This document shows, piece by piece, positions 45,881 to 62,692 of a stretch of DNA of 64,000 bases. A model generated the notes under the pieces. That model saw only the letters and a program-made list of their open reading frames with translations, was not told the origin of the DNA and did no database searches. The number at the start of each line of letters is the position of its first letter. The first letter of the stretch is position 1. This stretch comes from Halorussus litoreus (GTDB lineage Archaea > Halobacteriota > Halobacteria > Halobacteriales > Haladaptataceae). Made by a program: the position numbers and the translations under genes. The stretch covers positions 62,001 through 126,000 of the forward strand of contig NZ_QLVG01000002.1 in assembly GCF_003382685.1 (NCBI RefSeq), given 5' to 3'.

Positions 45881-48800
45881 CGCTCATCACCGCCTCGATG
45901 TCCTCGTCGTCGCGAACACGGAGCGGAACATACGCTGCATCGTCCTTGTGAACCTCGTCGACGAACTCCCGCTTGCGGTGATGGCGGACATCGCACGCCC
46001 GACGGTAGTCACAGTATCGGCAGTTCGCTCCGCGGGCGGACAGAAGCGTCGTGTGGAACCGTCCGTTGCCGATCGCCTCGTCGATCTGGCCCAACCACTC
46101 CGGAACGACATCGTTCAGGAACCGGCGGAGTGCGACCTCTGAATCGAACTTCGATTCGACGCCGCGTGGAACCTTGAGGTCGTTTGGCGGTCGCACCTGA
46201 TAGTACGTCGCCGAGAGCGAGCCCTGTTCGAAGAGATCACCGTCGACGACCTCGGCGGCAGCGAGCAGATAGATGGGGAGTTGGAACTTCGTGCCGCCGG
46301 TCGTCTTCGTCATATACGGTACTCGACCAGTTTTGTAGTCGTAGAGCGTGAGTGTCGGTTGTTCGCCACCCGGGCTCACGTCAACGCGGTCGATGTATCC
46401 CCGAATCGAGACAGTCGAGCCGTCCGGTCGCTCAACTGTGAACGGCCCAGCATCCGAGTCGGGAAGTCCCTCGCCGAACGGGGCTTCGAACAGGTGTGGG
46501 CGGGCGGTGCCGTCCCGCGAGAGTTCGTTGTCGAGGAAGGTAGCGAACAACCCCTGTTCCGGTGCGTCGTGGGGTTTGCTCCCGGCCTCGTACGGAGCAC
46601 TCTCGCCGTCACCCAGGCCCGCGAACAGCTCCGCCTTCCACCGTTCGTAGAACAGGCCGTCGTACTCGAAGTCAGCATCCCGGAGTTCTTCGACGGCAAT
46701 CTCGCGAAGGTGCGTCGCCAGGTCGTCCCGGTCGAAGTTTGTGAGATCGACACCATCCTCCGTCTCGTACTGCAGATCCGCGAAAAACCGTTCGAGGACG
46801 TCGTGGACGTACGATCCGGTTTCGAGGGGCGTAGGGACGACCTCGACGTCGTCGGGATCCTCGATTCCGAGCACTTCGTCGGCGTAGAACTTGAACCCAC
46901 ACTCGACGTATCGCTCGATGCGACTCGCGCTGTAGGGTTCCCGCTCCGACAGAGGGTATACCTCATCGACTGTCTCGGGATCCAACACGCCGTCGTGGTC
47001 GGAGAGGCCAGCCGTTCCCCTGTTGGCCGCACAGTGGAGTCCCCGATCCGTGCGCTTCGTCTGCTCGGGGGAGAGATCACCTCGGTCGCCGGCGCGGCTG
47101 ACTGCCGCACGCCGGTCGTCCGTTGCAGCGACGTGCCGCTGCAGGTCTTCGCGGGATCCCACGCGGTCGTCGACGCCGCCTTCGGGTTCGATGCCGGTCA
47201 CGCGCTGGAGTTCGTCGAGGACCGGCGACCGGACGACGGCGGATTCGTCGTCGCCCGTCTCTGGTGTAGTGATCGTGAGTTCGTCGACGTTCGCGAGGAG
47301 CGTCGCGAAGAGATAACGCCCTCGGAGGCGCTCGTCTCCGGTGTCGAATCGTGGATGGGCGTCGGTCATCTCCTCGAAGAAGGCCGGGCGTTCCGGCGTC
47401 ACCGGGAAGTGCTCGCTCGTCAGTCCCACGAGGAACACCTTCTCGAACGAGCGCATCCGGGCGTCGAGTAGCCCCATCACTTCGACATGGCCGCCGGCAG
47501 CGCGCTGTGGAACCCGGATCGGCACACCATCGAACGCCCGGGTGAAGAGTGCCAACGGGGAGAGGTCGCTATTGACTGCCGCCAGCGACTCGAACGAGGA
47601 GAGGACCTCGTCCACGAGGTCGTAAGCTCGCTGTTCGACGGCTTGCTCGGCGCCGCTAGCGTAGTCCTCCGTTGCCGCCTCCAAGCCGAACCGGTCGTTC
47701 AACAGTCGCCGGAGCGTCTCGGTTGCTCCCTCGATGTCCTCTGTTCTGAGCGAGTCCAGGGTGGCCAGCAGATCCTCGATCAGAGCCGCCGCTTCGTCGT
47801 CGACGTCATTGAGCAGAGGTGATACAGAAACAGTATCACGTCGGCGAGCAGCTGCCGTGACAGCGTTGTCTTGGTCGGTGTCAACGACGTCGACCAGTGG
47901 ATTCGCTAACAGGGATGTGAGGTCCTCCGCCCGCGGATCCAGTTCGGCGAGGTTCAGGAGGTCGTGGACAACGCTCCCGGTGAACGTCCGGTTCAGCTGT
48001 GAGGCGGCGGTCGTGACGTGCGGGATGTTGAACGTATCGAATGTGTCCTCGACGTACCCCGAATAGGCCTCGGTTCCCGGGACGACGACGGCCAGGTCGT
48101 CGGGGTCACGGCCATCGGCCAACTCGGTTCGGAGCTCGCGAGCGACGAAGCGAATCTCGCGCTCGGGCGTCGGGAGTTCACGCCATCGCAGAGCGTCTGG
48201 AGCAGGGACAGTATCCGGATCCGGGCGGTAGAGTGACTCGGTGATCGTTCCGAAGGCCCGCCCTGGCTCGTCGACTGGCTCGAGTTCTACTGTCTCAAAG
48301 TCGAGCTCTTCGTAGACCTCCAGGGCATCTTCCGCAACAGCGTCGACTCCGCTACGACCATCCTGATGGAGCGGCAGCAGTGCAATCATCGGAAGTTCGT
48401 CGACGAGGCGTTCGATGAGGCGAAGTTCGACGGGGCGGAACTCGTGATACCCGGAGAGGACGACGACATCCAGTTCCGGGGAGAGCGTCGATAGTGACTG
48501 GTCCGCCGTCGCGACGGCGTCGAACATCTCTCCTCGGGTACAGACCCACTCATCAACGTAGTCAGCATGGAGGTCCTGATAGTGGCGGTACGCGTCGACA
48601 GTAGCTGCCGCGATACGGTCATCGAGGGTTGAGCCCTCGAACTCCGCCGCCAGTGCGTCGACGGTCCCGACGCCGGCGTCATCGAAGAGTGAGAAACGAC
48701 TACTGAACGAATCCGCGAGAACGGGCGAGGCCGGTTCGCCAGCAAGAGCGCCATCTGTTTTGGCTGTCGTTCTGTCGAGTGCGTACTCCGCCAGGCGGCG

Positions 48801-49061
48801 GTTCAACTGTCCAGAAAGTGGTTGGACCGGACCGTGGAGATGCTCGTACCACTCACGAACGACCGCATCAAGCGTCTCAGCGCGAAGGCGGAGTGGGTCG
48901 TGCGACGCGGCCCAGCTGTCCTCAACCGCACTTCGGCGTGCGTCATTCCGAGTTAGGTAGAGAACACTTCCCAGCGAATCGGTGGCGATATCATCAGCCA
49001 ATTGAAACGACTTCTGTTCCAATCGGACATGTTTCGGGCCGGTAAGAAGCGTTGAATCCAT
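45873..49061 (-). CDS. AddB-like nuclease/inactivated helicase subunit
   Basis: 1062 residues from ATG 49061. The N-terminal region is helicase-like without a clear Walker A. The middle has VFLVGLTSEHFPVTPERPAF, as in AddB. The C-terminal PD-(D/E)XK nuclease has VDVSPGGEQPTLTLYDYKTG and QLPIYLLAAA. Four cysteines suit the AddB iron-sulphur cluster: RYVECGFKFYADEVLG upstream and NCRYCDYRRACD near the end. The protein's stop overlaps the start of the AddA-like gene. The start was chosen because residues above 49061 are Cys/Arg/Ser-rich and non-acidic. Together with the next gene it should form a heterodimeric helicase-nuclease. Confidence 0.82.
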   Translation of the reverse strand: MDSTLLTGPKHVRLEQKSFQLADDIATDSLGSVLYLTRNDARRSAVEDSWAASHDPLRLRAETLDAVVREWYEHLHGPVQPLSGQLNRRLAEYALDRTTAKTDGALAGEPASPVLADSFSSRFSLFDDAGVGTVDALAAEFEGSTLDDRIAAATVDAYRHYQDLHADYVDEWVCTRGEMFDAVATADQSLSTLSPELDVVVLSGYHEFRPVELRLIERLVDELPMIALLPLHQDGRSGVDAVAEDALEVYEELDFETVELEPVDEPGRAFGTITESLYRPDPDTVPAPDALRWRELPTPEREIRFVARELRTELADGRDPDDLAVVVPGTEAYSGYVEDTFDTFNIPHVTTAASQLNRTFTGSVVHDLLNLAELDPRAEDLTSLLANPLVDVVDTDQDNAVTAAARRRDTVSVSPLLNDVDDEAAALIEDLLATLDSLRTEDIEGATETLRRLLNDRFGLEAATEDYASGAEQAVEQRAYDLVDEVLSSFESLAAVNSDLSPLALFTRAFDGVPIRVPQRAAGGHVEVMGLLDARMRSFEKVFLVGLTSEHFPVTPERPAFFEEMTDAHPRFDTGDERLRGRYLFATLLANVDELTITTPETGDDESAVVRSPVLDELQRVTGIEPEGGVDDRVGSREDLQRHVAATDDRRAAVSRAGDRGDLSPEQTKRTDRGLHCAANRGTAGLSDHDGVLDPETVDEVYPLSEREPYSASRIERYVECGFKFYADEVLGIEDPDDVEVVPTPLETGSYVHDVLERFFADLQYETEDGVDLTNFDRDDLATHLREIAVEELRDADFEYDGLFYERWKAELFAGLGDGESAPYEAGSKPHDAPEQGLFATFLDNELSRDGTARPHLFEAPFGEGLPDSDAGPFTVERPDGSTVSIRGYIDRVDVSPGGEQPTLTLYDYKTGRVPYMTKTTGGTKFQLPIYLLAAAEVVDGDLFEQGSLSATYYQVRPPNDLKVPRGVESKFDSEVALRRFLNDVVPEWLGQIDEAIGNGRFHTTLLSARGANCRYCDYRRACDVRHHRKREFVDEVHKDDAAYVPLRVRDDEDIEAVMSDD

Positions 49062-49290
49062 CGAACACCCCTCACAAAGATATCGGTAACACTTTACTCT
49101 TGGTGGTTCCGACAGCTTTGAAAGGAAGTCACCCAGATTGATCCGCAGACTTCGAGGACAGCACGTCGATCTCGATGGAAAGACGCCAGCGGAGGGGGAT
49201 GCTGAACTAAATAGTGCCAAAAATTACCAATTGTCTAGTAGAAATGGAAAGCATTGATTTTTCGGCAGACCATCCCAACACTATTCAATA
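49062..49290. promoter_or_regulatory. Divergent promoter region between AddB and the nuclease gene
   Basis: A 229-bp gap with an AT-rich segment at ~49205-49280 (aaaaattaccaattg, attgatttttcgg). TATA-like sequences on both strands suit divergent expression. No gene is seen. Confidence 0.3.
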
Positions 49291-51030
49291 ATGGATGTGA
49301 ACGAGGATCCGCCCTTTGCGAACTCTCCTAAACATCTTGACCCTTCTGAGGTTCATCGTCGAGATGAACAACTCCAGCGTGGGAACCACTCACTCGCAAA
49401 CGCCGACCGCGATGAGATCCTCTCCTCTTTGCTTCAGATCATTCGCGCGAATGGGACTCGCCGGACGCTAACACAGTTCTATGTCCATAATCTACTTTGG
49501 ATGAGACTGTTGCGAGAGGTTGATCAGAGTCGTGCAAAATCAAATCCGACTGGTTTGGAGCTCTCACCGGAGCAGGATCCTGGTCTCCCACCGCGACTCG
49601 TCCAGTTCGGCGTCGGAATTACCCTCCAGACGGATACTGAAACGACCGATCCACAGTCGTTCGAGCAGATTGCGACATATCTCCTCGAACTCAAGAACTG
49701 GTACGCTCGGCAGGGCAACTCACACCTCCCGCTCGACTCACCGATGGCGGATCCGTGCTTCGGAATGGTGTGGCGTGAACTCACGACGCTGCGTCACGCA
49801 GATGGTTTTCAGATGCTCGACAGAGCGTACCGGGCATACAAACCCTGGGAGCAGGAAATGGAGGAGCTACTCGGCTTTTCCATTGAGGATGCCGTCTACT
49901 ATACCCGTGAACTCACGGATTGGATCACACCGAAATTAGAGGGACAGGATACGGAGGTCGCAAGGTGGTCGCCGTCATTGCTAGATTTCTCTCAGAAAGC
50001 GATTGATCTCACGGACGAGGCGGTATGGGTATCCGACGAGACTCTTGTGGACTGGTGCGACGACAGTCCACGTTTCCAGAACTTCCTCGAACGACTGGCC
50101 ATCGAACCGGGCACTGTTTCCGGATTTCGAACGCCGGTAGATGTGAATCCACTAGAACGAGCGCCGTTCGTTCGAACTGATGATGAGTACTTGCTTCCGC
50201 TTCCCCGTACCGTTCTCTATGCTCTCGCCAACACATTCTACTACGATTTGATCGATTCGGAGTACCAGGGCGAATTTCAGCTGCGGTTCGGTGATTGGCT
50301 CGAGGAGTGGACTGAGGACTGTCTCTCGAAGGTCTTCTCGGAAGACGAGATCATTCGGAACTACACCTATGAGTACGACGGAGAGGAAGTGGAGGGTGAT
50401 ATACTGATCCTCCACGACGATGAACCCATTATAATCGAATGTAAGGGAAAGAAGCTCCGCGCCGAGACTCGGAAAGGAAATTTCGGGGGCATCGACGCGA
50501 TCAAGGAGGACATCGAACGGGGAATCGGGGACGCGTACCACCAGGCTGATCGGCTGGTGACGGGCGTTCAATCTGGCCAGATTACTGAGATCGAAACGTC
50601 GGATGGGACGACGATCTGCTTGGAACCCTCCACTCTTGCGGATGCACATCGGTGGCTTGTACTTGGAGAATCGTATGGGTCAATCGCGACTCGAGACTTC
50701 GCGAAGATACTGGATATATCGCCTGTCCCGTACGTCTGTGATATCTATGATCTGCAGGTCCTTACAGAGGTTCTTGAGTCCCCGAAGCGACTTCTCCACT
50801 ACGTCCGGCAACGGACACGTCAAACGACGGTTCAACTCCGGCGTCCTGGTACTCAATATGCGAACTCGAAAACCTTCAGTTCTGATGAGATTGACTACTT
50901 AGCCGTCTACAAGCGCAACGGATGGGAGTTCCCTCCGGGTGCTCAACGCATCACTGGGGCTGGGGACAACCTTCGAGAAGACGCCATCGATTCGATAATG
51001 GATAGCGGGGAGTTTCGATTCACGTTCTAA
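49291..51030 (+). CDS. PD-(D/E)XK (NERD/Mrr-like) nuclease-domain protein
   Basis: 579 residues. The first ~330 residues are helical with no known motif. Residues ~345-400 carry a nuclease core: LEEWTEDCLSKVF (helix with Glu), EVEGDILILHDDEPIIIECK (E, D, and E-x-K), then KGNFGGIDAIKEDIERGIGD. This is the order of NERD/Mrr/archaeal HJ resolvase-like nucleases. The C-terminal ~150 residues may be a specificity or DNA-binding region. It is divergent from AddAB and 250 bases ahead of the RHH-helicase operon. It is a likely defence or repair endonuclease; target unknown. Confidence 0.72.
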   Translation: MDVNEDPPFANSPKHLDPSEVHRRDEQLQRGNHSLANADRDEILSSLLQIIRANGTRRTLTQFYVHNLLWMRLLREVDQSRAKSNPTGLELSPEQDPGLPPRLVQFGVGITLQTDTETTDPQSFEQIATYLLELKNWYARQGNSHLPLDSPMADPCFGMVWRELTTLRHADGFQMLDRAYRAYKPWEQEMEELLGFSIEDAVYYTRELTDWITPKLEGQDTEVARWSPSLLDFSQKAIDLTDEAVWVSDETLVDWCDDSPRFQNFLERLAIEPGTVSGFRTPVDVNPLERAPFVRTDDEYLLPLPRTVLYALANTFYYDLIDSEYQGEFQLRFGDWLEEWTEDCLSKVFSEDEIIRNYTYEYDGEEVEGDILILHDDEPIIIECKGKKLRAETRKGNFGGIDAIKEDIERGIGDAYHQADRLVTGVQSGQITEIETSDGTTICLEPSTLADAHRWLVLGESYGSIATRDFAKILDISPVPYVCDIYDLQVLTEVLESPKRLLHYVRQRTRQTTVQLRRPGTQYANSKTFSSDEIDYLAVYKRNGWEFPPGAQRITGAGDNLREDAIDSIMDSGEFRFTF

Positions 51031-51280
51031 TTGCTTGGCCTCGACGATCTGGTGTTGAGTGTGTCTTCCCAAACTACTGTTCAGTACTCGCCGCTAATGT
51101 TTGGTAAGAAACGGGTGGGTTTCCAGCAGAAGCCTCGGAAATGGTGGAGGTAGCAAAGCATCTGGAACACCGGAATGGTAGTATCAAGGGGTCTCTTTCG
51201 CACTCACACAAACCCATACAGACCCACGAAAAATATAAATACTCATAGAGTATGGTAATGGGTACGAGGGGATACAAAGG
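51031..51280 (+). promoter_or_regulatory. Promoter region of the 51.3-57.1 kb operon
   Basis: A strong TATA-like aaatataaatac lies at 51231-51242, with a predicted start near 51265. gaggggat at ~51266-51273 could serve as a ribosome-binding site for the GTG start at 51281. No gene is visible in the rest of the 250 bp. Confidence 0.45.
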
Positions 51281-52423
51281 GTGAATATCGTAATAGACGT
51301 GCCCGATTCACTCGTCGGCCGGATGAAACGCGCTGTCGCTGCGGGCAACTACGATGACCCGCAGGAGTTCGTTCGGACGGCAATCGAGAATCAGATCCAG
51401 CTCGAAGAGGAGGAGACTTCCCAGGAGGTCAAATCACTCGACGAAGCCCTCAATTCTGTAGAGCCAGAGTCCGAAATAGAAGCATCGCCTGAGGAGACCC
51501 AGCCCGACGATTCGGCTCACGAACAGGCGCAAGAGCGCCGGTCCGACGATGCTGCGCCGGCTGATCGGACGAACAAGACAACGCTGTCGCTGGCTCGACA
51601 CCAGTACGACGACATTCCGACGGTCGCACCGCCCGACGAGTCGCGGTTGGACAAAGGTCCTCTCTGGGGACAGTACAATCGTATTTTCCCCGTCAAGCTT
51701 GTCGTTCGGGGATTAGCGAATGCTTTGCTGGACTCGTCCGAGGGGCTCCCCGACGGTCCGTGGCTTGATCTCCAGCCGTTTCAGCGACGCGCCGCGAGGA
51801 CGGCTCGGAAGATCGGGACTGAAATCGCAACTCACGATGAGCGAGCAGGGCGCAAACGAGGTGAGAAGCTTGCTGCCGCGTTGCCCACAGGTGATGATCC
51901 CGACAAATCGATGGATCGATTCGAGACGCATTTCATCGGACGCGTCGAGCATGACGATGAATTAACCGGGGCACTACCGCACCTGTCCTTCGTCGACATC
52001 GTTCGAGAAAGCCCCCAGCAAATCGGGCTCACGGACGCTGGCCAGGAGTTTGCAAGCCTCTCGAACCCACTTCTCGATGACGGCGTCGACGCCGACACGT
52101 CTCTCTCACAGGAGGAGCGACAGTTCTACATCTCGCACGTACGGGGCGTGCGAGAAGAAGAATATACGGCGATGCAAAAGGTCGCTCAAGCAATCGAAGA
52201 GGGAGACAACCGGCCAACGTCGCTGACCGAGCGGGTAGCTTATCTGAATCCGGAGTGGTCGAACTCGCAGGCTGAGACGATTCGCTCTGGCCTCACGAGT
52301 CGAATGTACGAGCTGGGACTGGTCGACCGGAGCCAGGTCGGTCAACGAGGTATTGCCTATGAACTAACAGCTGCCGGCGAGACGTTCCGATCCAACGACA
52401 CAGAATCCACACAACCTCAATAG
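51281..52423 (+). CDS. Ribbon-helix-helix protein with winged-helix C-terminus
   Basis: 380 residues from GTG. The N-terminal ~45 residues fit a ribbon-helix-helix DNA-binding domain (NIVIDVPDSLVGRMKRAV, then DDPQEFVRTAIENQI). An acidic linker (~46-100) is followed by a helical middle domain and a C-terminal winged-helix-like part (LTSRMYELGLVDRSQVGQRG then IAYELTAAGETF). No catalytic motif. It is the first gene of a four-gene plus-strand operon (spacing 10 bp to the next), so it may recruit the downstream proteins to DNA or regulate the operon. Confidence 0.7.
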   Translation: MNIVIDVPDSLVGRMKRAVAAGNYDDPQEFVRTAIENQIQLEEEETSQEVKSLDEALNSVEPESEIEASPEETQPDDSAHEQAQERRSDDAAPADRTNKTTLSLARHQYDDIPTVAPPDESRLDKGPLWGQYNRIFPVKLVVRGLANALLDSSEGLPDGPWLDLQPFQRRAARTARKIGTEIATHDERAGRKRGEKLAAALPTGDDPDKSMDRFETHFIGRVEHDDELTGALPHLSFVDIVRESPQQIGLTDAGQEFASLSNPLLDDGVDADTSLSQEERQFYISHVRGVREEEYTAMQKVAQAIEEGDNRPTSLTERVAYLNPEWSNSQAETIRSGLTSRMYELGLVDRSQVGQRGIAYELTAAGETFRSNDTESTQPQ

Positions 52424-52433
52424 ACTAACACCA

Positions 52434-53321
52434 ATGGCCGATAACGAGACATCCACCCCCGAATCGACGATCGACGCGCTGAGTCCTGGTGATGAGTGGC
52501 CGTTCCACTATCGTGGCTACGGGCTGAGCATAAACCAGGACGGCGACATTTGGTGGCAGGCGTATAACGGAACTGACCGCTTCGACCTGGAGCCGGTACC
52601 ATCCGGCCTCATTACCGAGCTCCTTGAGCTGAAACGGAGCGGCGGCGCGCTACGGGTTACCGAAGGCGGAGCCGTTATCACGCGAATCGAGACCGGAGAC
52701 GGCAGTTCAGACGCGTACAAGACCGTGTACGTCGGTCAAATGGACCTCGACGGCCGGCTCGTCCCCCGTGATGAACCGGGGCACGCCGTCCCGATCAGTC
52801 CGAACGGACTCAATCCCGGCGACCTCTGGAAGAGCGTCTATGATGGAGCGACGTACTCGTTCAGTGGCGAGCGGTTCTGGTGGCAGGACGGCGAAACGAA
52901 GCTTCGGCACTCATTTGCCGATACGTTGCCCCAAGAGATCACCGACGAGCTGAAACGGCTGCGGATGAACGGCGGTCGGTTCGTGATCACGCCCTGTGGT
53001 GACGTCATCACGCAGATCCCCAACGAGAAAACGCCTCCCGATATCCGAGCGCAATTCCGGGAGCTGTCTCGCCCGGTGAAACGGTTCCTCCAGCTTCGAC
53101 GCGACCGCGGCAACGTCGATATGGTCCCCGTCTACGTTGGCCATCTCTCCGCTGACGAGCGGCCGATCGAAGTCGAAGAGCCGACCCGGCTGACCGATCC
53201 GCTCTCTGAGCAAGAGGAAGCCTCGTTAGAGGCCTGGGTCGCCGCGATGGGGTCCTACGAAGAGAGCGATCTCTCAGAAGACGACCACCGCCGCGACGAT
53301 CGAGGAGAGGGGTCACGATGA
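52434..53321 (+). CDS. Tandem-domain protein A of the RHH-helicase operon
   Basis: 295 residues with an internal duplication. Copy 1 (~17-105) has DEWPFHYRGYGLSI, DIWWQAYNG, a helix LITELLELKRSGG, ALRVTEGGAVITRI and VYVGQM. Copy 2 (~122-240) has DLWKSVYDGATYSF, RFWWQDG, EITDELKRLRMNGG, RFVITPCGDVITQI and VPVYVGHL. The shared pattern is a Trp-rich strand pair, a helix ending in GG, a strand, G-x-(V/I)-I-T and (P)VYVG. I know no named family. The final ~40 residues are acidic and disordered. It overlaps the next gene by 4 bases (ATGA). Confidence 0.72.
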   Translation: MADNETSTPESTIDALSPGDEWPFHYRGYGLSINQDGDIWWQAYNGTDRFDLEPVPSGLITELLELKRSGGALRVTEGGAVITRIETGDGSSDAYKTVYVGQMDLDGRLVPRDEPGHAVPISPNGLNPGDLWKSVYDGATYSFSGERFWWQDGETKLRHSFADTLPQEITDELKRLRMNGGRFVITPCGDVITQIPNEKTPPDIRAQFRELSRPVKRFLQLRRDRGNVDMVPVYVGHLSADERPIEVEEPTRLTDPLSEQEEASLEAWVAAMGSYEESDLSEDDHRRDDRGEGSR

Positions 53322-54208
53322 GCGCTGAGGGAAACGGGTCGCTCAGGCAGGAGCCGACCCAGGTCCCGACCGTCAACCGGCGACAGCTGACGGTTGAACC
53401 GGGACATCCGTGGCCCTCTGCATATCGCGGTTCGAAATACAGTATCGTTTCGTCCCGGAAGTTCGGTGATGTGGCCCAGTGGAGCCACATGGGCGACATC
53501 CAGGCGATGACCGAACGGCCGGGCGGACTCAAAACTGCCCTCACCGAACTCGGGAAAACCAACGGGCGTGGGAGCTTTCGGCTGACCGCTACCGGGGAAG
53601 TACTGACAAAAGTCCCAGCTGACCAGTACCAACGGACTTCGCAGGCCCGTGCTAACCGTGGTCATATCCCCGTTTATGTCGGCAAGCTCGATGGCGACTT
53701 TGATTTCGAGGAGATCTCCAACGACCCTACGCCACCCAGCGACACAAACGTCGTGGAAATCTGGACGGGCCTCCCGTTCAATCACGGCGAGACTTGGGCG
53801 GTTTGTACAGATGATGTGCTCCGATGGAGCTGGCAGGACTACCGCTTTGAATCGGCCTTTGATCATCCGGAACTTGTTGCGGCGTACAAATCTCTCCGTC
53901 CAGAGGGCGGGCGGATCTATATCAACGAACACGGTCACATCTGGGGGAATGTCGATCGCGATACAGTCCCCTCAAGCGAACGGGGACGGATCCGCGACGC
54001 TTTCGACGAGTGGGAACGAACGGCGTCGAATGCTGAACGCCGACTTGTAACTCGTCGACTGAACCGTACTGAGAGTGAGGCCGCTGCGAACGGTCTCCTC
54101 CCCGTGTATCTCGGTCATATTTCACAGTTCGACGGAGGGATCGTTCCGAAACCAGTGGTCACTGACAACAGCTACTTCGGAGACAGTGCGATGGACCCGG
54201 ATCAGTAG
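53318..54208 (+). CDS. Tandem-domain protein B of the RHH-helicase operon
   Basis: 296 residues, paralogous to the preceding protein and also duplicated inside. Copy 1 (~28-125): PWPSAYRGSKYSIVS, VAQWSHMGD, a helix LKTALTELGKTNGRG, SFRLTATGEVLTKV and IPVYVGKL. Copy 2 (~147-280): TWAVCTDDVLRWSWQDYRF, ELVAAYKSLRPEGG, RIYINEHGHIWGNV and LLPVYLGHI. Conservation between A and B is low except for this pattern, so they are old duplicates, possibly a heterodimer. It lies 32 bases ahead of the SF2 helicase gene. Confidence 0.72.
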   Translation: MSAEGNGSLRQEPTQVPTVNRRQLTVEPGHPWPSAYRGSKYSIVSSRKFGDVAQWSHMGDIQAMTERPGGLKTALTELGKTNGRGSFRLTATGEVLTKVPADQYQRTSQARANRGHIPVYVGKLDGDFDFEEISNDPTPPSDTNVVEIWTGLPFNHGETWAVCTDDVLRWSWQDYRFESAFDHPELVAAYKSLRPEGGRIYINEHGHIWGNVDRDTVPSSERGRIRDAFDEWERTASNAERRLVTRRLNRTESEAAANGLLPVYLGHISQFDGGIVPKPVVTDNSYFGDSAMDPDQ

Positions 54209-54240
54209 CGCACCTCAAATAATGACTGCCGACTAACATC

Positions 54241-57138
54241 ATGGGACGGCGTTTTCCAACACCGATCTTCGGGATTGAACGCGGACCGGAATGGGTACCG
54301 ACACTGGTAGAGATCGCTATCGAGAACGACGACGAACTCACTCGAGATCAGTTCGAGGAGCGCTGTCGTGAGCGCTTGCGCAAACCAGACGGCAGCCGGT
54401 ATTCGCCGAGTTACATCGAACGAACGCTGTCGACGTTCATCCAGATGGGTGTCCTCAGAGAACGCGACGATAAGATCACCGTCTGGGAGTTCGCGCGCCG
54501 GTTCCACGACGGCGACATCGAGTATACGGAGTTCCTCTGGCGTGGCATCAAACAGAGCTGGGTTCTCCGGGGTAATTATCCGGAAGGAATTGAGGGGCTC
54601 CGGGATGCGCATTACGTCGTTCGACACGCTGATCGGCCGTTACAAGCGGGAGAGATTCGTGAACGGCTGACCGACGAGTTTGGATACGAGTACAACGATG
54701 CTGGGATACGCGGCTATCCGGAACTGTTAACCCAGCTCGGTGCGCTCCGGGAAACCGACGACGGCTACGTTCCTGGCCCCAGATCGAGCACCTACGAGGG
54801 TCGGTGGCGGGATGTCGACATCTTCCACAACCTCGAACGGTGGATCCATCATCGAGGCCCGACGTTCGATGTCCCAGCTGCTGACATCAAACAGGCGCTC
54901 GTAAAGTACTACATGTACCGGGAGTCCGGTGGGTGGGGACGGCACCGCAGCCTGTACAACCGCTTCCTCGACGACTATGTTCGTGAGACGTCGCGTGAGA
55001 GCGACGTGGCTCATCCCCAGATTCATCTGTCCGAAGAATACCAGGAGGATGAACGCATTCGAGACACCCTCAGCGAACAAATCAAAGCGAAATTCGATGA
55101 TATCGACGGCCGCGATCTCGCTGGACTCTATGCCGAGACACTCGAGGACATCCTCGCTGCCGAGACCGAGGCGGAAGCCAAGGACCTCCTCTCAGCGGCG
55201 AGCCCCGGTATCTCCCGCCGGGACGTCAGAAATGCGTTTGACGAGGAGAGAGAACCGTACACGTTCCCTGCTGGATTTTCGCTTTACGACTGGCAGTCTG
55301 AAGCGATTGACACGTGGTTCGACAACGAGGCCAGCCCATCTGAACGCGGTATCGCGCAGGTGGTGACGGGGGCCGGTAAAACGGTGATGGCGCTTGGTGC
55401 TATCGACGAGTGGCTGGACAAGCATCCCGACGGCGTCGTCACGGTTGTTGTGCCGACGAAGGTGTTGATGCACCAGTGGCTCCGCGAATTCCTCGAGAAA
55501 TTGAACGTCCCTCCGTCGGAGATCGGCTGGGCTGGCGGTGGTCACAAGGACGATCATAGTGACCGTCGCATCATCGTGAGCATCGTCAACTCCGCCGTCA
55601 AGGACGATTTCCTGGCCCGGTCGCTCGACGCTGCCGATACCGATGAGCACCTCTTGGTTGCCGATGAGTGCCACCGGTATACGGGGGACGTCCACTCGAA
55701 AGTCCTCGAATATCCCAACACAGCGACGATGGGGCTGTCTGCGACCCCGCTGTCGACGATCGATCCGGAGAACGACGAACTCACCGACGACGACGAGTTC
55801 CTCCTCGAGAACTTGGGCTCGCTTTTCTACAGGCTGAGTTACGACGAGGGGGTTGACCGCGGCCTCATCTCCGAGTTCACCATCAACTACGTCGGTTTCG
55901 AGTTAACGCCGGCCGAACGTCACACCTACGAACAGTTCTCGAAGAAGGTGTCATCTGCCGTTCGGGATATCGAAGCGCGCCACGGCCACCGACTCGCCGA
56001 ATTGCGGGGGAACTATTCACAGAATCTACAGACGATTCGCGAGTCGACGGACTCGCCGACGCCGGCGATTGCCGACTTCTTCGAGTACACGAAACGGCGG
56101 CGTGAGCTGATCGCCGAGGCGGTCTCCCGACAAGCGATCACGCACCGCCTCCTCGAGGACGCAATCGAAGAGGACAAGAAGACGATCGTATTCCAGGAAC
56201 GAATCAAACACCTGGAGCAGATGGTCGCCCCGTATGATCAGCGGGATGAGAAGACCCAAACGGGCAAGTATGGCTCGAAGGAGAGCGAACGGGCGAGTCT
56301 CTACCAGCAGTACGAGGACGAACTCGACGATATCAATCGCGACCTCGAAAACCTGTTTTTCCGTCGCGATTACGCACCCGTGATGTACCACTCCGGGCAC
56401 CGCAATTCGGAGTGGAACGAGTGGGGGATCGAATGGTTCCGGGACGAAGGGTTTGCGAACGTGATGCTGAGTGTCCAGGCTCTCAAGGAAGGGGTTGACG
56501 TCCCCTCGGCAGATGTCGGGATTATTCGTGTCTCGTCTGGAAATGTCCGTGATCGCATCCAGACACTCGGGCGCATCCTACGAACCGGACACGCTCCGGA
56601 CAAGCCTTCGACGCTATACGTGCTCTATGCCCAGGATACAGTTGACGAACGAATCTTCGAGGAAGTCGACTGGGAGGCCGAAATCGGCGGTACCCATCAC
56701 TACTACAAGTGGGAGACCAGCGACGAAATCATCAAGGGCGAACTGGAGGGTCCTTCGAAGGAACACGAACCGGACGTCTCTGTGTATCAGCAACCGGAGA
56801 TCCCCGATCCGTCCGACCTCGAACGTGGGGATCCATATGAGGGGCCTCGTCGTGGGCGGACTGTGAGCGTCGACACGCAGGGACGTCCGTTTCGTGACAC
56901 AGCCGATGGCCGTCAGTATATCACGACTCCGGAAGTCGAAGAAGTGGCTGAGTACGTCCACCGCCTCCGCGGCGGCGGTCGCATCATCATCAATGATGCC
57001 GACCACATGATCACCGTCTCCGATGAGGGGCCGGTCTTTCTTGGAGTTCTCGAGGCCGACTCGCTTGACTACGAAGAACAGACGGAGGACGAGGAGGTTC
57101 CCGAAACCTTCGAGGAATTCATGAATGAGGGGGATTGA
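54241..57138 (+). CDS. SF2 (DEAD/DEAH-type) helicase with winged-helix N-terminus and C-terminal repeat module
   Basis: 965 residues. The N-terminal ~200 residues contain two winged-helix-like units (LTRDQFEERCRERLRKPDGS, AGEIRERLTDEFGYEYNDAG). Helicase core: FSLYDWQSEAIDTWF (Q region), VVTGAGKTVMAL (~376-386), VVVPTKVLMHQWLREF, LLVADECHRYTG (~470-480), MGLSATPLS, MLSVQALKEGVDVPSADVGI and DRIQTLGRILRTG. The last ~70 residues (VEEVAEYVHRLRGGGR, then IIINDADHMITVSD and PVFLGVLE) match the module duplicated in both preceding proteins. This suggests the three assemble together or recognise the same ligand. The helicase class is that of restriction and defence translocases. Confidence 0.85.
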   Translation: MGRRFPTPIFGIERGPEWVPTLVEIAIENDDELTRDQFEERCRERLRKPDGSRYSPSYIERTLSTFIQMGVLRERDDKITVWEFARRFHDGDIEYTEFLWRGIKQSWVLRGNYPEGIEGLRDAHYVVRHADRPLQAGEIRERLTDEFGYEYNDAGIRGYPELLTQLGALRETDDGYVPGPRSSTYEGRWRDVDIFHNLERWIHHRGPTFDVPAADIKQALVKYYMYRESGGWGRHRSLYNRFLDDYVRETSRESDVAHPQIHLSEEYQEDERIRDTLSEQIKAKFDDIDGRDLAGLYAETLEDILAAETEAEAKDLLSAASPGISRRDVRNAFDEEREPYTFPAGFSLYDWQSEAIDTWFDNEASPSERGIAQVVTGAGKTVMALGAIDEWLDKHPDGVVTVVVPTKVLMHQWLREFLEKLNVPPSEIGWAGGGHKDDHSDRRIIVSIVNSAVKDDFLARSLDAADTDEHLLVADECHRYTGDVHSKVLEYPNTATMGLSATPLSTIDPENDELTDDDEFLLENLGSLFYRLSYDEGVDRGLISEFTINYVGFELTPAERHTYEQFSKKVSSAVRDIEARHGHRLAELRGNYSQNLQTIRESTDSPTPAIADFFEYTKRRRELIAEAVSRQAITHRLLEDAIEEDKKTIVFQERIKHLEQMVAPYDQRDEKTQTGKYGSKESERASLYQQYEDELDDINRDLENLFFRRDYAPVMYHSGHRNSEWNEWGIEWFRDEGFANVMLSVQALKEGVDVPSADVGIIRVSSGNVRDRIQTLGRILRTGHAPDKPSTLYVLYAQDTVDERIFEEVDWEAEIGGTHHYYKWETSDEIIKGELEGPSKEHEPDVSVYQQPEIPDPSDLERGDPYEGPRRGRTVSVDTQGRPFRDTADGRQYITTPEVEEVAEYVHRLRGGGRIIINDADHMITVSDEGPVFLGVLEADSLDYEEQTEDEEVPETFEEFMNEGD

Positions 57139-57211: not shown

Positions 57212-59029
57212 ATGGAGATCTCGTTTCAACACACGAATTCTCTCGCAGGGCACGAATCAACACTCCTGCATGTGTCTACACGGGATGACGATACCTACAG
57301 CTATCTTATTGATGCTGGCGAAAGTGTCTCTTCTACAGCGTTTTTGGACACGGATGCCGAGTTGGATGGCGTCTTCCTAACGCACGCCCATACCGACCAC
57401 TATGCAAGCCTCAGTCAAATTCTCTCGACAGCTTCCGATACGCAACTCTATACGTCACCTGGAACGGCGACTATGTTTGAAGATGTCTACACTGAGGCCG
57501 ATCGGTACCAAGACCTCGGCGATGTCATCCACATCACAGAAGCACTGACTCCGATCATACTTGGACATCCCTCAATGATGGTGTGTTTGTCCTCCCGGTG
57601 CCTGCAGGGCACACGCTAGGCGCAGCCGGCTTTCTCTTCCGAATCGATGATCTACAGAACAATGAAACCGTGACAGTACTCACGACGGGTGACTTCACAA
57701 CTCGACCAGTCGGGGGGTATCCTAGCTTGACGATCCCCGAATCGATCGATATTGATATTATGATCGCGAACGCCGCTACTTCGCCACACTTCGAAGACAA
57801 GCTCAACGATGCACTCGAAGTCCTCCTCGAACGGGGACTCAGTGGTGCCACGACACTTGTCGCGGCAAGTGCCCTGACCGGAGTTCACATGCATACCTCC
57901 TTGGACATGTCCTCGACGAGATTGACCGTCAACTTCCGATCCACCTCGCTGGCCAAGCAGCGAAGCTCTACACTACGCTCGATTACGATGTCCCCTTCGT
58001 CTCTGTTCATCCTCAGTTCGAACACACCGACGAGGTACTTGCCTCCGGTGCGATCACTATCGCCGGGCCCGAGGCTCCGACACAAGGAAGCATCGCCCGT
58101 CTTTACGGGGTAATCAAGGACGATCCAGACGCCGTCTTCGTCCAGCTCTCGACCTCAGGCGTAGAGGCTGTTAATGATGGTGAGTGTACCAAGCACTACG
58201 CCGAACTCGCAAACCACCCGACCAAGCAACAATTCATCAACACCGTTGAAGAAAACCTTCCTCGGCACCTGATTCTAAAACACGTCCGACCGGAGCACGG
58301 CAAGGAAATCGGGGCGAACTTCGATAATCTGTTTCACTGGAGCAACGACGATACGCAGGCCCACATCCTCTATGATGACGGTGACTGGCCGGCTTCACAT
58401 TGGGTGGATGACGGGACCGCAAGCAGAATTCGGCGGCGAAATTACCAGCAGAGTGGCTCTCGCCTCCTGATCGACCGCCCTATCGATGAGCTCCCAACGG
58501 TCTCCATGACACGGCAATCCCCAGAACTGTCGCCAGAGGGCGTCGAAATTACCCAATTCAAAGACCGCTATGAGTCGATACAGTCAATCCAACAGCCACA
58601 AGCGATGAATCAGCGAGTGGAGAGGAAGAACAGGAATCGCCTGGTGTCCATTCCGATGCCGAGGATTCGAATCAACCACCGTCGATTGATATGGAACTCT
58701 GGACGGACATCACCGAACGACTGGATGCACTTGAAGCTGTACTGGACGATATCAGAGATACGATCCCGACGGAGGAGACCGTCACGAGCGGAATCGACAC
58801 GTTAGAGGGTCGGATCGACGATATTGAAGCAGACATCAGCAGCCTCCCCGCCCAGATAGATTCAGACGACGGGAACACAATCTCCAGCACCGTTCTGCGG
58901 CAGGAAGATCTCGTCTTGTTCCGCGTAAACTCAGATGTACTTGCCGATCAGGACCTCTCGCTTAGCCACCAACAAGATGTCAAACTCAAAATCGTTGAGG
59001 TCTCTGATGACCAATCTAAAGAAAATTAG
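57212..59029 (+). pseudogene. Metallo-beta-lactamase/beta-CASP nuclease gene with three frameshifts
   Basis: The protein is recoverable in four consecutive segments: frame from ATG 57212 to ~57555 (FLTHAHTDHYASL, metal ligands His58, His60, Asp62, His63); next frame ~57560-57885 (VFVLPVPAGHTLGAAGFLF, LTTGDFTTRPVGGY); third frame ~57888-58570 (GHVLDEIDRQLPIHLAGQ, VSVHPQFEHTDEVL, HLILKHVRPEHG); and the original frame again to 59029 (acidic linker, then a coiled coil LDALEAVLDDIRDTIPTEE). Each step needs one extra base, so three single-base deletions have occurred. Intact it would be ~606 residues, a beta-CASP-type nuclease. It follows the helicase by 73 bases. Confidence 0.78.
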
Positions 59030-59176: not shown

Positions 59177-59725
59177 TTAGTCGGCGAGAAGGCCCTCCAC
59201 CTTTGTCTGAAGGTGGTCGAATGCCTCCTCCGCAGTCTCCACATCTGCTGCGCCAGTGATAACGGCATTACCATTCGCGAAGACTAACAGCACGGCTGGG
59301 AAGTCCGGCGGCCGATAGATGAGACCAGGGAACTGCTCAGGTTCGTACTCGACTGCTTCTAGTCCCAGCCCGATCGACAGCGCATTGAGGTTCACCGATC
59401 GCTGCAACTCTCCCGTACAGACGACGTTCTGGACGGTGAACCCGGTCTCGATGGATGTATTGATGATGTCCAGCTCGGCTAGGGTTTGCAGGAACGCACG
59501 GTTTGTCTCGTGTAATTCATCGAAGCTGGAGCATCCGCTGATGATGTACTTGCCACTCCGGTAGAGGGTAATGAGTGGCCCATCCTCGACGAGCCGTACG
59601 TAGAGACCGTGGTAGTTCTCGGGATCGTATTCGGTGTACGGAACTGGGAGATCAGCTTCGACTTCCGCAATGTCCAGTTCGACACCGACGTCGCCCGAGC
59701 CAACGGCGTTCGCGATCTCGACCAT
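59177..59725 (-). CDS. tbp: TATA-box-binding protein (divergent TBP)
   Basis: 182 residues, the usual archaeal TBP length, with two direct repeats (~1-88 and ~95-182). Repeat 2 is canonical: TVQNVVCTGELQRSVNLNAL, GLGLEAVEYEPEQFPGLIYR, FANGNAVITGAADVETAEEA. Repeat 1 is degraded (YDPENYHGLYVRLVEDG, LYRSGKYIISGCSSFDE), without the FPG and the Phe that normally wedges the TATA box. The ATG directly follows the TAA of the SNF2 helicase gene, so it is translationally coupled to a helicase and methyltransferase. It may direct a special promoter set with the plasmid TFB, or act as a DNA-bending subunit of the helicase. Confidence 0.88.
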   Translation of the reverse strand: MVEIANAVGSGDVGVELDIAEVEADLPVPYTEYDPENYHGLYVRLVEDGPLITLYRSGKYIISGCSSFDELHETNRAFLQTLAELDIINTSIETGFTVQNVVCTGELQRSVNLNALSIGLGLEAVEYEPEQFPGLIYRPPDFPAVLLVFANGNAVITGAADVETAEEAFDHLQTKVEGLLAD

Positions 59726-62692
59726 TTAGTCCCCTCCAGACGACGGTGACACAACGAACGCCGCAGTCACGAGGTCTGGTTCCTGCGGCGTGACGTGTTT
59801 CTCTTCCTCAAGCCGGGACAGCTCCTCTTCACGTTCTCGTCGCAGACTCTCGAGCTTCTGCTTTGCGTTCCCAATCGGCGCGGACATATCCGCACCCTGC
59901 TCAGCCCGCTGTTGGTACTGCTCTAACCGCTCTTCCCACTCTTCGATTTGTTCTTCGAAGTATCGCTCAGCGTGCTCGCGTTTGATTTCGATCTCCCGTT
60001 CTCGTTCGGTTCGGGCCTCTTCTGCAAACGACTCAACGTGCGCCCACGCCTCCATCTCTGCAGCCTCGTAGAGGTTCTCAGCCATACTCGAGAGCCGATC
60101 AACCTCGTGAGACGATGAGATATCGTCGGGAGCGGCCGTTTTCGAGAGTTCCGGAACATCCGTCGTTACACTGCCATCCGGGCCAGCATAGAGGCGTACG
60201 AACTTCTCGGTCACCACATCCCCGGCACCGGAGACGTAGCCAAGGCGGTAATTGAACAGGATGCCAGGCGTTCGAGACGCCGTCGCAGCGACCTTCGTCG
60301 CAATTTCACCCTGGATTCGGTCGCTGTCTAGGCAGAATTCGATGAGCGACTCGACGAGAGGATGGTCAAGCGAGATGAACTCGACATCATCCGCCTTCAT
60401 CGCGATATCCTTGGTGAACGTGGCCCGTGGGTACTGTCGTGCCACCTGATTTCCACTCAAGACCTCAGGGACGTCCAACTGGAACACGTCACCTTCCATC
60501 CGCGCCGGTCCGGGTCGAACACCCTTGATAGAGCCGCCGAATTCGTCGAAGAACACTCGCACGAGCGTCTCGATATCGTCCTCAGACACCTCGCCGTGTT
60601 GACTGCGTTCGATCACATCGAGAATCTCGTCGTCCTCGCCGGAGAGGTCGAAGCGATCGCGAATCAGGAACTCGTTTTCGACAGTCTGAATCGCTTCGCG
60701 TTTCTCCTCGATGGTCGCCTCGATATCGGCGACGACACGTTCGGTTGGCTCCCCTTCAGCGATAGCCGCCATGATCGTCTCGTCCAAGTCGACGTCCTCG
60801 AGGACGCGACCGAGAACATCCGAGCGCATCCCGAGGTCCGACTCGATCTGGTTCGTCTTCTCGATGAGCAGGTTGAGGATCTCGCTCTCGCGGGTATCGG
60901 CGAAGAAGAGGTTGCGAATCTCGACCGTGTGCTCCTGGCCGTAGCGGTGGAGCCGCCCCATCCGCTGGTCGATCCGGATGGGATTCCACGGGAGGTCGTA
61001 GTTCACCATGATGTGGGCGAACTGGAGGTTGAGTCCCTCCTGGGCGGCGTCGGTCGCGAGCATCAGGTTGGCCTCCTCCTCGAATTTGCTCATCTCTTCC
61101 CGTCGACGGGACTGCTCGAGGTCGCCGTATACCTGCGCGACGTCGTGGTCAGCGAAGACCTCGTCACGTAGATACTCTAGCGTGTCCGTGTATTCGGTGA
61201 AGATCAGGATTTTCTCGTCGGGGTCCTCTGAGAGAATACGGTCGACGAACTGCCGGAGCAATCGGGCTTTCGAGTCCGTCTCGATGTTCTTGGCCTGCTG
61301 CCAGAGCTGTTTCACGCGGTCCAGTTCCTGCTGGACTTGCGACTGATTGAGCGTAATCGTGACCGTCTCAAGCGCCTCCTCGACCCGAGCGCGTTCTGCG
61401 TCGGTCAGCGTCTCGGGTTCGGTACTATACCGCGGAATGAGGTCCTGAACCTCGTCGGGAAGGTCTTCGGCCACGGCGTCGTTCTGAATGGCCCGCATCC
61501 GGTTTTCGAGGGACTTCCGGATCGCGTAGATACTCGAGACCAGCCGCTTCTGGTAGATGACCATCGTGAACCCCGCCGCCTGGTTCTCCTCCTGCTGGGC
61601 GAGGTTGTAGTACTCGCGGATGTACTCGGTGACATCGTCGTACAGCTTCCGCTCCTCGCGAGTCATCTCGACCGGGAGCGCCTCGATGTTCTTCTCGGGG
61701 AACATTCGGGTCCCGTCGGTCTCGTACATATCATCCTTCAGCCGGCGGATCATCAGGTCCTCAAGCGCCTCAGGACTGATCTGCGACTCGTGGCTGAAGC
61801 GATACGGGTCGAGCAGGCTCACGAGGAAGTAGAACTGGTCTGATTTCCCCTTGTGCGGGGTCCCGGTGAGCAGCAGCAGCGCATCGGAGTTGTCGGCGAC
61901 GGCCTCACCGACCTGATACCGCTGTGTCCGCTCGATTGAGTCGTCGCTCGACCGGCGAGCTGTGAGGTGATGAGCCTCGTCGAAGACCGCGACGTCCCAC
62001 TCCTCGTCGAGATTCTGGAGGGCATCGAGGACAGAGACGCGGTCCGACTCGGGGTCGTCGGTGGTCTGCTTCGCGAAGTCGATGGAGGTGATGATGAGGT
62101 CCTCTTGCTTCCAGACGTTCTGGTTGGGGTGGGACTTCCGGTGTGTACGAACCGTCTCGCGGTCGTAGATGACAAAGTTGCGGTCGAACTTCTCGCGCAT
62201 CTCCTCCTGCCACTGGACGGTCAGCGGGGCCGGCGCGACGATGAGCACCCGGTCGGCGCGGTCGCGGGCGATGAGCTCTTCGATGACGATGCCGGCTTCG
62301 ATGGTCTTCCCGAGGCCGACCTCGTCGCCGATGAGGTAGCGGTGGTCGTAGGAGTTGAGGATCTCATAGGCGGCCTGTACCTGGTACGGTTCGATCTCGA
62401 TGCGGTTGCTGGTCAGGGAGAGAAAGCGGTCGTATTTGTAGGCGAGATCGAGTCGAATCGCGCGCTCTCGAAAGTCATAGTGGAGTGGGGCGTCGGATTG
62501 GCCGGCCGCGAGGCGGTCGACGAGCGAATCGAGTTTCTCGATGTGAGGGAGGCCACTAGGGAGTTTGCGGAGCTGGCCCTCCGAGGTGTAGACGTGGAGG
62601 AGGTGACCGTCGTTGGGCCGTTCCTCGATTTTCGTAATCTCTCCACGCCCGCCGGCGAACTTGACATGATCGCCGACTTCAAATTTAGTCAT
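59726..62692 (-). CDS. SNF2/RapA-family helicase-like ATPase
   Basis: 988 residues. An N-terminal SH3/Tudor-like strand region (VGDHVKFAGGRGEITKIEER) precedes the Snf2 core: YLIGDEVGLGKTIEAGIVIE (120-139), LIVAPAPLTVQWQEEM, WDVAVFDEAHHLT (~232-244), LLLTGTPHKG, then ILIFTEYTDTLEYLRDE, ATDAAQEGLNLQFA and WNPIRIDQRMGRLHRYGQ. The C-terminal ~250 residues end in a long charged coiled coil. Such ATPases translocate on dsDNA; family members act in DISARM (DrmD) and BREX-type phage defence. The start overlaps the methyltransferase stop by 4 bases. The next gene is TBP with no gap. Confidence 0.9.
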   Translation of the reverse strand: MTKFEVGDHVKFAGGRGEITKIEERPNDGHLLHVYTSEGQLRKLPSGLPHIEKLDSLVDRLAAGQSDAPLHYDFRERAIRLDLAYKYDRFLSLTSNRIEIEPYQVQAAYEILNSYDHRYLIGDEVGLGKTIEAGIVIEELIARDRADRVLIVAPAPLTVQWQEEMREKFDRNFVIYDRETVRTHRKSHPNQNVWKQEDLIITSIDFAKQTTDDPESDRVSVLDALQNLDEEWDVAVFDEAHHLTARRSSDDSIERTQRYQVGEAVADNSDALLLLTGTPHKGKSDQFYFLVSLLDPYRFSHESQISPEALEDLMIRRLKDDMYETDGTRMFPEKNIEALPVEMTREERKLYDDVTEYIREYYNLAQQEENQAAGFTMVIYQKRLVSSIYAIRKSLENRMRAIQNDAVAEDLPDEVQDLIPRYSTEPETLTDAERARVEEALETVTITLNQSQVQQELDRVKQLWQQAKNIETDSKARLLRQFVDRILSEDPDEKILIFTEYTDTLEYLRDEVFADHDVAQVYGDLEQSRRREEMSKFEEEANLMLATDAAQEGLNLQFAHIMVNYDLPWNPIRIDQRMGRLHRYGQEHTVEIRNLFFADTRESEILNLLIEKTNQIESDLGMRSDVLGRVLEDVDLDETIMAAIAEGEPTERVVADIEATIEEKREAIQTVENEFLIRDRFDLSGEDDEILDVIERSQHGEVSEDDIETLVRVFFDEFGGSIKGVRPGPARMEGDVFQLDVPEVLSGNQVARQYPRATFTKDIAMKADDVEFISLDHPLVESLIEFCLDSDRIQGEIATKVAATASRTPGILFNYRLGYVSGAGDVVTEKFVRLYAGPDGSVTTDVPELSKTAAPDDISSSHEVDRLSSMAENLYEAAEMEAWAHVESFAEEARTEREREIEIKREHAERYFEEQIEEWEERLEQYQQRAEQGADMSAPIGNAKQKLESLRREREEELSRLEEEKHVTPQEPDLVTAAFVVSPSSGGD

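What the first reader, a model, noticed from the sequence alone, without database searches (positions are those of the whole stretch)
51281..57138. Operon in which one unnamed module recurs five times across three consecutive proteins including a helicase
Seen: proteins A and B (52434-54208) each contain two copies of a ~100-residue unit with a helix ending in GG, a strand, G-x-(V/I)-(I/L)-T and VYVG. The SF2 helicase ends with the same half-unit (RLRGGGRIIIND, MITV, PVFLGVLE). Genes are spaced 10, -4 and 32 bp and start with an RHH DNA-binding protein. Inference: the proteins share a fold or ligand and form one complex, possibly a phage- or plasmid-defence translocase, as it sits between a PD-(D/E)XK nuclease, AddAB and a broken beta-CASP nuclease. 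I cannot match the set to a named defence system.
Basis: partly seen in the sequence, partly recalled or inferred. Interest (0 to 1): 0.9.

Follow-up and report, generated by a model that had tools for sequence, protein, structure and literature searches.

The report
Haloarchaeal helicase trio with swappable partners
Salt-loving archaea carry a mobile three-gene set, a DNA-motor helicase plus two helper proteins built from the same unnamed domain, which always travel together but are plugged into different DNA-cutting or DNA-marking genes, so it is probably an undescribed type of anti-virus system.

Summary
Proteins A and B each hold two copies, and the helicase tail holds one complete copy (not a half), of one ~100-residue domain. 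Profile comparisons connect the five segments, and AlphaFold gives the same strand-strand-strand-helix-strand-strand-strand order in the three copies that were modelled. No Pfam, PHROGs, PADLOC, NCBIfam or PDB match exists for the domain. A, B and the helicase are an obligate set: found in the same 17 of 392 Halobacteriales genomes, 16 genera. Their partners are exchanged: (1) here, a PD-(D/E)XK nuclease and an RHH protein, in a 7.9-kb block shared at 95-96% identity with other genera; (2) most often, an SNF2 helicase, a giant zinc-knuckle-repeat protein, an Mrr nuclease and B; (3) Pbe genes or dndCDE. The helicase is an XPB/PbeA-like SF2 clade of its own, without the PLD nuclease of PbeA. Best reading: a dsDNA-translocase core with two adaptors that docks onto alternative recognition/nuclease cassettes, i.e. 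an undescribed ATP-dependent defence system. Defence and complex formation are inferred. The RHH protein is not specific to the set: its relatives sit beside DISARM and PDC-M33-type genes.

The parts
49291..51030 (+). PD-(D/E)XK nuclease (NERD/Card1/GapS1-like), probable fifth component of the window's version
   Evidence: NCBIfam GapS1 1.6e-8, Pfam NERD 0.004; conserved [D/E]xD...(I/V)ECK signature at residues ~368-387, aligned with a homologue; inside the shared 49219-57138 block; omega 0.11-0.17. Absent from most other loci with the trio.
51231..51241 (+). TATA-like element AAATATAAATA, putative promoter of the operon
   Evidence: sequence; conserved in L009 and L041, one base different in L040
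51239..51253 (.). perfect inverted repeat ATACTC-ATA-GAGTAT overlapping the TATA element, candidate operator for the RHH protein
   Evidence: intact in window, L009 and L041, one mismatch in L040; not found upstream of more distant RHH relatives
51281..52423 (+). RHH-type N-terminus plus C-terminal winged-helix-like region (380 aa), probable regulator or adaptor
   Evidence: relatives in L111, L112, L114 and L115 beside PDC-M33-type genes, with drmA/B/C nearby in L112
52434..53321 (+). protein A (295 aa), two copies of the module
   Evidence: orthologues in 17/392 genomes
52482..52772 (+). module copy A1 (residues 17-113)
   Evidence: hhalign; AF2 strands 28-53, helix 57-66, strands 71-102
52791..53174 (+). 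module copy A2 (residues 120-247)
   Evidence: hhalign; AF2 strands 139-161, helix 167-176, strands 181-196 and 230-237
53318..54208 (+). protein B (296 aa), two copies of the module
   Evidence: orthologues in the same 17 genomes
53375..53707 (+). module copy B1 (residues 20-130)
   Evidence: 98% with A1 and A2
53735..54157 (+). module copy B2 (residues 140-280), the most divergent copy
   Evidence: (89% with A2, 51% with helicase tail), null 0/60
54241..57138 (+). SF2 helicase (965 aa), XPB/PbeA-like
   Evidence: Pfam ResIII 2.9e-24 and Helicase_C; invariant Walker A TGAGKT 376-381, DECH 475-478, SAT 500-502, motif VI QT-GR-LR; XPB closest solved structure
54241..55230 (+). helicase N-terminal region (residues 1-330), mostly helical with two winged-helix-like units; unique to this helicase family
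   Evidence: AF2 secondary structure; profile A7 rings in exactly 17 genomes
55258..56640 (+). SF2 motor core (residues 340-800)
56806..57099 (+). module copy in the helicase tail (residues 856-953), a complete unit
   Evidence: hhalign 95% with A1; b-b-b-a-b-b-b at 872-936; its HMM finds A
57212..59029 (+). decayed beta-CASP/MBL gene (frameshifted); intact 606-aa version directly follows the helicase in Halalkaliarchaeum plasmid pAArc-CO; not required
   Evidence: absent from the block in L009 and L040

Best explanation
A, B and the helicase form the exchangeable motor core of an uncharacterised haloarchaeal defence system of the ATP-dependent restriction type. The helicase is an XPB-like dsDNA translocase. 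A and B are non-catalytic adaptors made of the same domain that the helicase carries at its tail, and they probably assemble on that tail through like-with-like contacts. The core is then coupled to one of several cassettes that supply target recognition and cutting: a PD-(D/E)XK nuclease with a DNA-binding RHH protein here; SNF2 + zinc-array + Mrr nuclease in most hosts, where B is encoded as the last gene of that cassette; or Pbe ABC-ATPase genes or dndCDE in others. On invading DNA the core would translocate and deliver or activate the partner nuclease. Shown: the shared domain, obligate co-occurrence, partner exchange, intact ATPase motifs, purifying selection, horizontal spread. Inferred: complex formation, translocation, DNA cleavage, antiviral role.
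For: Same domain in A, B and helicase tail. A, B and the helicase N-domain ring in the identical 17 of 392 genomes, 16 genera. Partner exchange around an invariant trio: nuclease+RHH, SNF2-Zn-Mrr-B (9 of 17 genomes), PbeA-PbeC-A-B-hel, A-B-hel-dndC-dndD-dndE. G323 has one A and one helicase but two B genes, one per cassette. The 5-gene block moved between genera with edges at the AddB start and the helicase stop, all five genes at omega 0.04-0.23. Helicase motifs invariant; XPB, whose archaeal partner is the Bax1 nuclease, is the top structural match. Neighbours include type I RM, pAgo and AddAB.
Against: No antiviral phenotype, binding or nuclease activity is shown. In Natrinema pellirubrum the trio stands without a conserved nuclease next to it. 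Patchy, plasmid-borne distribution also fits a plasmid-maintenance or anti-defence role. The fold of the module has no confident structural relative, so adaptor function is a guess from duplication and lack of catalytic motifs.
Confidence: 0.55

Rival explanations
1. It is a restriction or effector arm of the Dnd/Pbe phosphorothioate world: the trio reads PT-marked or ABC-ATPase/DndE-scanned DNA, as DndFGH or PbeABCD do.
For: Directly contiguous, same strand, with pbeA-pbeC (L045, L056) and with dndC-dndD-dndE (L057); helicase scores best on PbeA (160 bits) and dnd_restrict_1 (116 bits) models.
Against: DndC in only 2 of the 17 trio genomes and PbeC in 6 of them, never in the window genome or the type 1 genomes; helicase separated from PbeA by a very long, fully supported branch and lacking the PLD domain.
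Confidence: 0.15
2. It is a DNA repair or plasmid-maintenance complex (XPB-Bax1-like nucleotide-excision or recombination), not defence.
For: Closest solved relatives are XPB/Bax1, RAD25 and UvsW; often on plasmids; AddAB-type genes next door in the window and beside B in L058.
Against: Present in only 17 of 392 genomes and exchanged between genera, unlike housekeeping repair; repeated pairing with restriction-type genes.
Confidence: 0.15
3. RHH plus downstream genes act as a toxin-antitoxin or addiction unit, the RHH protein repressing its own promoter and neutralising the rest.
For: Palindrome overlapping the TATA element and a weak ParD-like N-terminus.
Against: RHH is missing from 14 of 17 trio genomes and pairs with unrelated defence genes elsewhere; no small toxin-like gene; a 965-aa ATPase is not a typical toxin.
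Confidence: 0.07

Closest known systems
DndCDEA-PbeABCD (CxC ABC-ATPase-DndE systems; Xiong 2019 PMC6459918; Reappraisal 2024 PMC10853773)
   Same: ResIII-type SF2 helicase whose best PADLOC model is PbeA; in three genomes the trio is contiguous with pbe or dnd genes.
   Different: No PLD/HKD nuclease on the helicase, unrelated N-terminus, extra C-terminal module, separate deep clade; no PbeC or DndC in this genome.
DISARM
   Same: SNF2 partner in type 2 loci is DrmD-like (253 bits); relatives of the RHH protein occur in DISARM-containing loci.
   Different: DrmA, DrmB and DrmC do not occur in the trio operon; those genes are in separate loci that only share the RHH relative.
Zorya (ZorD)
   Same: SNF2-type helicase and Mrr-like nuclease combination in type 2 loci, as separate genes.
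   Different: No ZorA/ZorB motor genes were seen in the trio loci; SNF2 scores better on DrmD.
Archaeal XPB-Bax1 helicase-nuclease complex
   Same: Motor fold; top solved structures for the helicase.
   Different: Window helicase has an unrelated N-terminus and a C-terminal module; Bax1 (DUF790) is not its neighbour. A normal XPB-like/DUF790 pair lies elsewhere on the Halobaculum plasmid.
GapS1/NERD/Card1-like nucleases
   Same: Protein 49291-51030 has the PD-(D/E)XK signature and matches GapS1 at 1.6e-8.
   Different: Score 33.8 bits is far below the GapS1 cut-off of 320; only in the near-identical type 1 copies.

Membership tests
PbeABCD | PbeA = PLD/HKD nuclease fused to SF2 helicase | tested here: not met
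   No PLD hit in the 965-aa helicase; 160 bits vs 555 bits for a true PbeA-type protein; separate clade
PbeABCD | PbeC CxC ABC-ATPase in the same genome | tested here: not met
   No PbeC in G000; present in 6 of 17 trio genomes
PbeABCD | PbeD/DndE cognate | tested here: inconclusive
   No DndE-like gene in the window operon; the RHH protein is only loosely comparable; the gene at the PbeD position in L045 has no Pfam or PADLOC hit
Dnd phosphorothioation | dndC in the genome | tested here: not met
   TIGR03183 absent from G000, found only in G272 and G115
DISARM | DrmA + DrmB (+DrmC) core | tested here: not met
   None of the operon proteins hits DrmA, DrmB or DrmC as a family; only generic helicase similarity to DrmD at 16.6 bits
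Zorya | ZorA/ZorB membrane motor | tested here: inconclusive
   No ZorA/ZorB match among the operon proteins scanned; the whole genome was not searched
SF2 helicases, XPB/ResIII-like | Walker A, DExH, SAT and motif VI intact | tested here: met
   Invariant in 14 family members; Pfam ResIII 2.9e-24; XPB top structure
PD-(D/E)XK nuclease (49291-51030) | acidic residue plus (D/E)xK motif | tested here: met
   EGD...IECK aligned with TD...IECK in a homologue; catalysis not tested
Antiviral defence system (general) | protects host from virus or plasmid | not testable with these tools
   Only genomic association is available

The most novel reading that the evidence does not exclude
A previously undescribed archaeal defence core in which one new domain, present in two adaptors and in the tail of an XPB-like translocase, acts as a universal docking system. 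It lets the same motor be plugged into unrelated cassettes: SNF2/zinc-array/Mrr nuclease, Pbe ABC-ATPase, DndCDE phosphorothioation, or a PD-(D/E)XK nuclease.
Probability: 0.4. Interest if true: 0.85.

Novelty: new variant of a known kind. Interest (0 to 1): 0.7.

Why it matters
Archaeal immunity is poorly charted and a 2026 survey calls for archaeal-specific systems (PMC12988326). This is a compact, obligate three-gene set with a domain that no searched library recognises, spread over 16 genera, and it links restriction-type, DISARM-like, Pbe and phosphorothioate machinery. If the docking idea holds, it would show how defence modules are exchanged around a common motor, and it gives a direct test: one tail domain, two adaptors, three alternative partners.

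Tried and rejected
Viral and phage origin: no match to the helicase in viral contigs or phages, or to B in phages. Sliding-clamp fold for A: PCNA chains lead both Foldseek lists, but at E 0.02-0.07, probability 0.2 or less and TM about 0.15, so not accepted. Sequence-profile search of A and B against PDB: nothing significant. RHH as obligate member: rejected. PbeA membership: rejected by tree and missing PLD domain. AddAB as partner: adjacent in window and in L058, but the B-AddB gap is 148 bp and the L058 locus also holds an SNF2 remnant, so left open. Weak A hits in G243, G378, G191, G294, G364 and G150 (E 1e-3 to 1e-2) were treated as chance. Papers: no description of this set found.
Full report
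What was checked. The four ORFs, their spacing and the A/B ATGA overlap are as reported. The window is part of a 163-kb contig of a 3.84-Mb haloarchaeal genome. The nearest named relatives come from Halorussus.

The repeated unit. Family alignments of A (14 sequences), B (17) and helicase (14) were cut into five segments and compared by hhalign. The A1, A2 and B1 copies match each other at ~98%. The helicase tail matches A1 at 95% and A2 at 73%, and B2 matches A2 at 89%. The weakest pairs, B1-B2 (27%) and B1-tail (11%), are weak by direct comparison but are joined through the other copies. 35 comparisons with other helicase stretches gave at most 2.1%, and column-shuffled nulls never reached the observed score in the seven pairs tested. 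Single-family HMMs cross-detect directly: tail to A at 2.7e-11 in the best case and 5.9e-6 in the window. AlphaFold of A (pLDDT 82, pTM 0.75) shows strand-strand-strand-helix-strand-strand-strand twice, and the helicase model (pLDDT 72, pTM 0.58) shows the same order at 872-936. No superposition was computed and B was not folded. Pfam, NCBIfam, PADLOC, PHROGs and PDB sequence searches give nothing for A or B. Foldseek of A gives no confident relative.

Co-conservation. A strong A match, the helicase N-domain profile and B all occur in the same 17 of 392 genomes from 16 genera. One further genome (G318) keeps B without A or helicase, in a cassette with a shortened zinc-repeat gene, and two have B fragments. 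A search of 393 genomes across the phylum found A only in the same order.

Partners. Neighbourhoods fall into types. Type 1 is the window's: nuclease, RHH, A, B, helicase; Natrinema pellirubrum has A, B, helicase alone near a Piwi gene. Type 2 (9 of 17 genomes, plus a Haloferax lucentense plasmid) has A-helicase adjacent to, and in most cases divergent from, SNF2, a 1030-1245-aa zinc-knuckle-repeat protein, Mrr nuclease and B. Type 3 has pbeA-like, pbeC and a small gene followed by A, B, helicase in L045 and L056, or A, B, helicase followed by dndC, dndD, dndE in L057; in the fourth genome (G330) PbeC is on another short contig and adjacency is unknown. In G323 a single A and helicase coexist with two B genes, one in the Pbe-type operon and one ending an SNF2-zinc-Mrr cassette.

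Mobility and selection. The window block 49219-57138 is 95-96% identical to copies in Halorussus marinus (L009) and a Halobaculum plasmid (L040). It starts at the AddB start codon and ends at the helicase stop, so the nuclease 49291-51030 travels with the set. With Halalkaliarchaeum pAArc-CO (L041) similarity runs on through the MBL gene. All five genes show omega 0.04-0.23 between copies. The MBL gene is frameshifted here but intact in L041.

The helicase. SF2 motifs are invariant. XPB, RAD25 and UvsW are the closest solved relatives. PADLOC's best model is PbeA at 160 bits, against 555 bits for a genuine PbeA-type protein. In a tree the trio helicases form their own fully supported clade on a very long branch, so placement among deeper groups is unsure. 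PbeC and DndC are absent from this genome.

The RHH protein. Relatives at 48-57% identity occur in genomes without the trio. In L111, L112, L114 and L115 they sit next to a PDC-M33-type ATPase gene set; drmA, drmB and drmC, identified by PADLOC in L112, lie just upstream, with the same annotated arrangement in L111. It is best seen as a shared regulator or adaptor of defence operons. A palindrome overlaps the operon's TATA-like element, which fits autoregulation but is not tested.

Mechanism. Duplication of one domain over two non-catalytic partners and the motor's tail, strict co-inheritance of those three genes, and exchange of everything else argue that the domain mediates assembly and that cassettes provide recognition and cutting. 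Steps shown are the anatomy, co-inheritance, exchange, selection and transfer. Steps inferred are assembly, translocation, cleavage and protection.

Literature. Xiong 2019 (PMC6459918) and the 2024 reappraisal (PMC10853773) describe Pbe/Dnd systems; the passages read do not mention such a trio. A 2026 survey of archaeal immunity (PMC12988326) was checked by term search only. Absence from these and from the paper searches is not proof of absence from subscription literature.

Noticed in passing
L051:7214-10501 (-) and orthologues in L044, L046-L050, L053-L055, L045: Type 2 partner of about 1030-1245 aa with an N-terminal coiled-coil-like part and a ~650-residue array of dozens of CxxC...CxxH zinc-knuckle repeats; no Pfam family; N-terminal part matches phrog_36169 (4.7e-16).
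   Followed up: partly
L057:9457-18527: A-B-helicase is followed on the same strand by DndC (fused to Sp-DndD), a DndD-like ABC ATPase and DndE.
   Followed up: partly
L042:9589-15733: In Natrinema pellirubrum plasmid pNATPE02 a Piwi-domain gene lies just upstream of A-B-helicase, with a primase-like remnant in place of the RHH gene.
   Followed up: no
L111, L112, L114, L115: RHH-protein relatives are linked to a GHKL-like ATPase (PDC-M33A, 105 bits), a 336-aa protein and DUF6339; drmA/B/C lie upstream in L112 and, by annotation, L111. L114 and L115 hold two copies of the ATPase set.
   Followed up: partly
window 59726-62692 (-) with G000:C2 ~124689-128819 (L119:4690-8820): SNF2 helicase (BrxHII-like 568 bits, DrmD-like 446 bits) directly followed by a 1376-aa ORF whose C-terminal part in the window has a TaqI-type specificity domain; probably another defence locus next door.
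   Followed up: partly
window 42245-49220 (-) and L058:3867-10344: AddA/AddB-like pair is adjacent to the operon in the window, and a related pair lies 148 bp after a solitary B gene in G045.
   Followed up: partly
L042:4644-8702, L044:18975-25260, L050:36-5704: A MoxR-like ATPase, VWA and MBL gene group recurs near the trio; the MBL is related to the broken gene of the window.
   Followed up: no
window 59177-59725 (-); L009 and L040 transcription-factor genes after the helicase: Extra TATA-binding-protein genes lie just downstream of the trio in the window and in two relatives.
   Followed up: no
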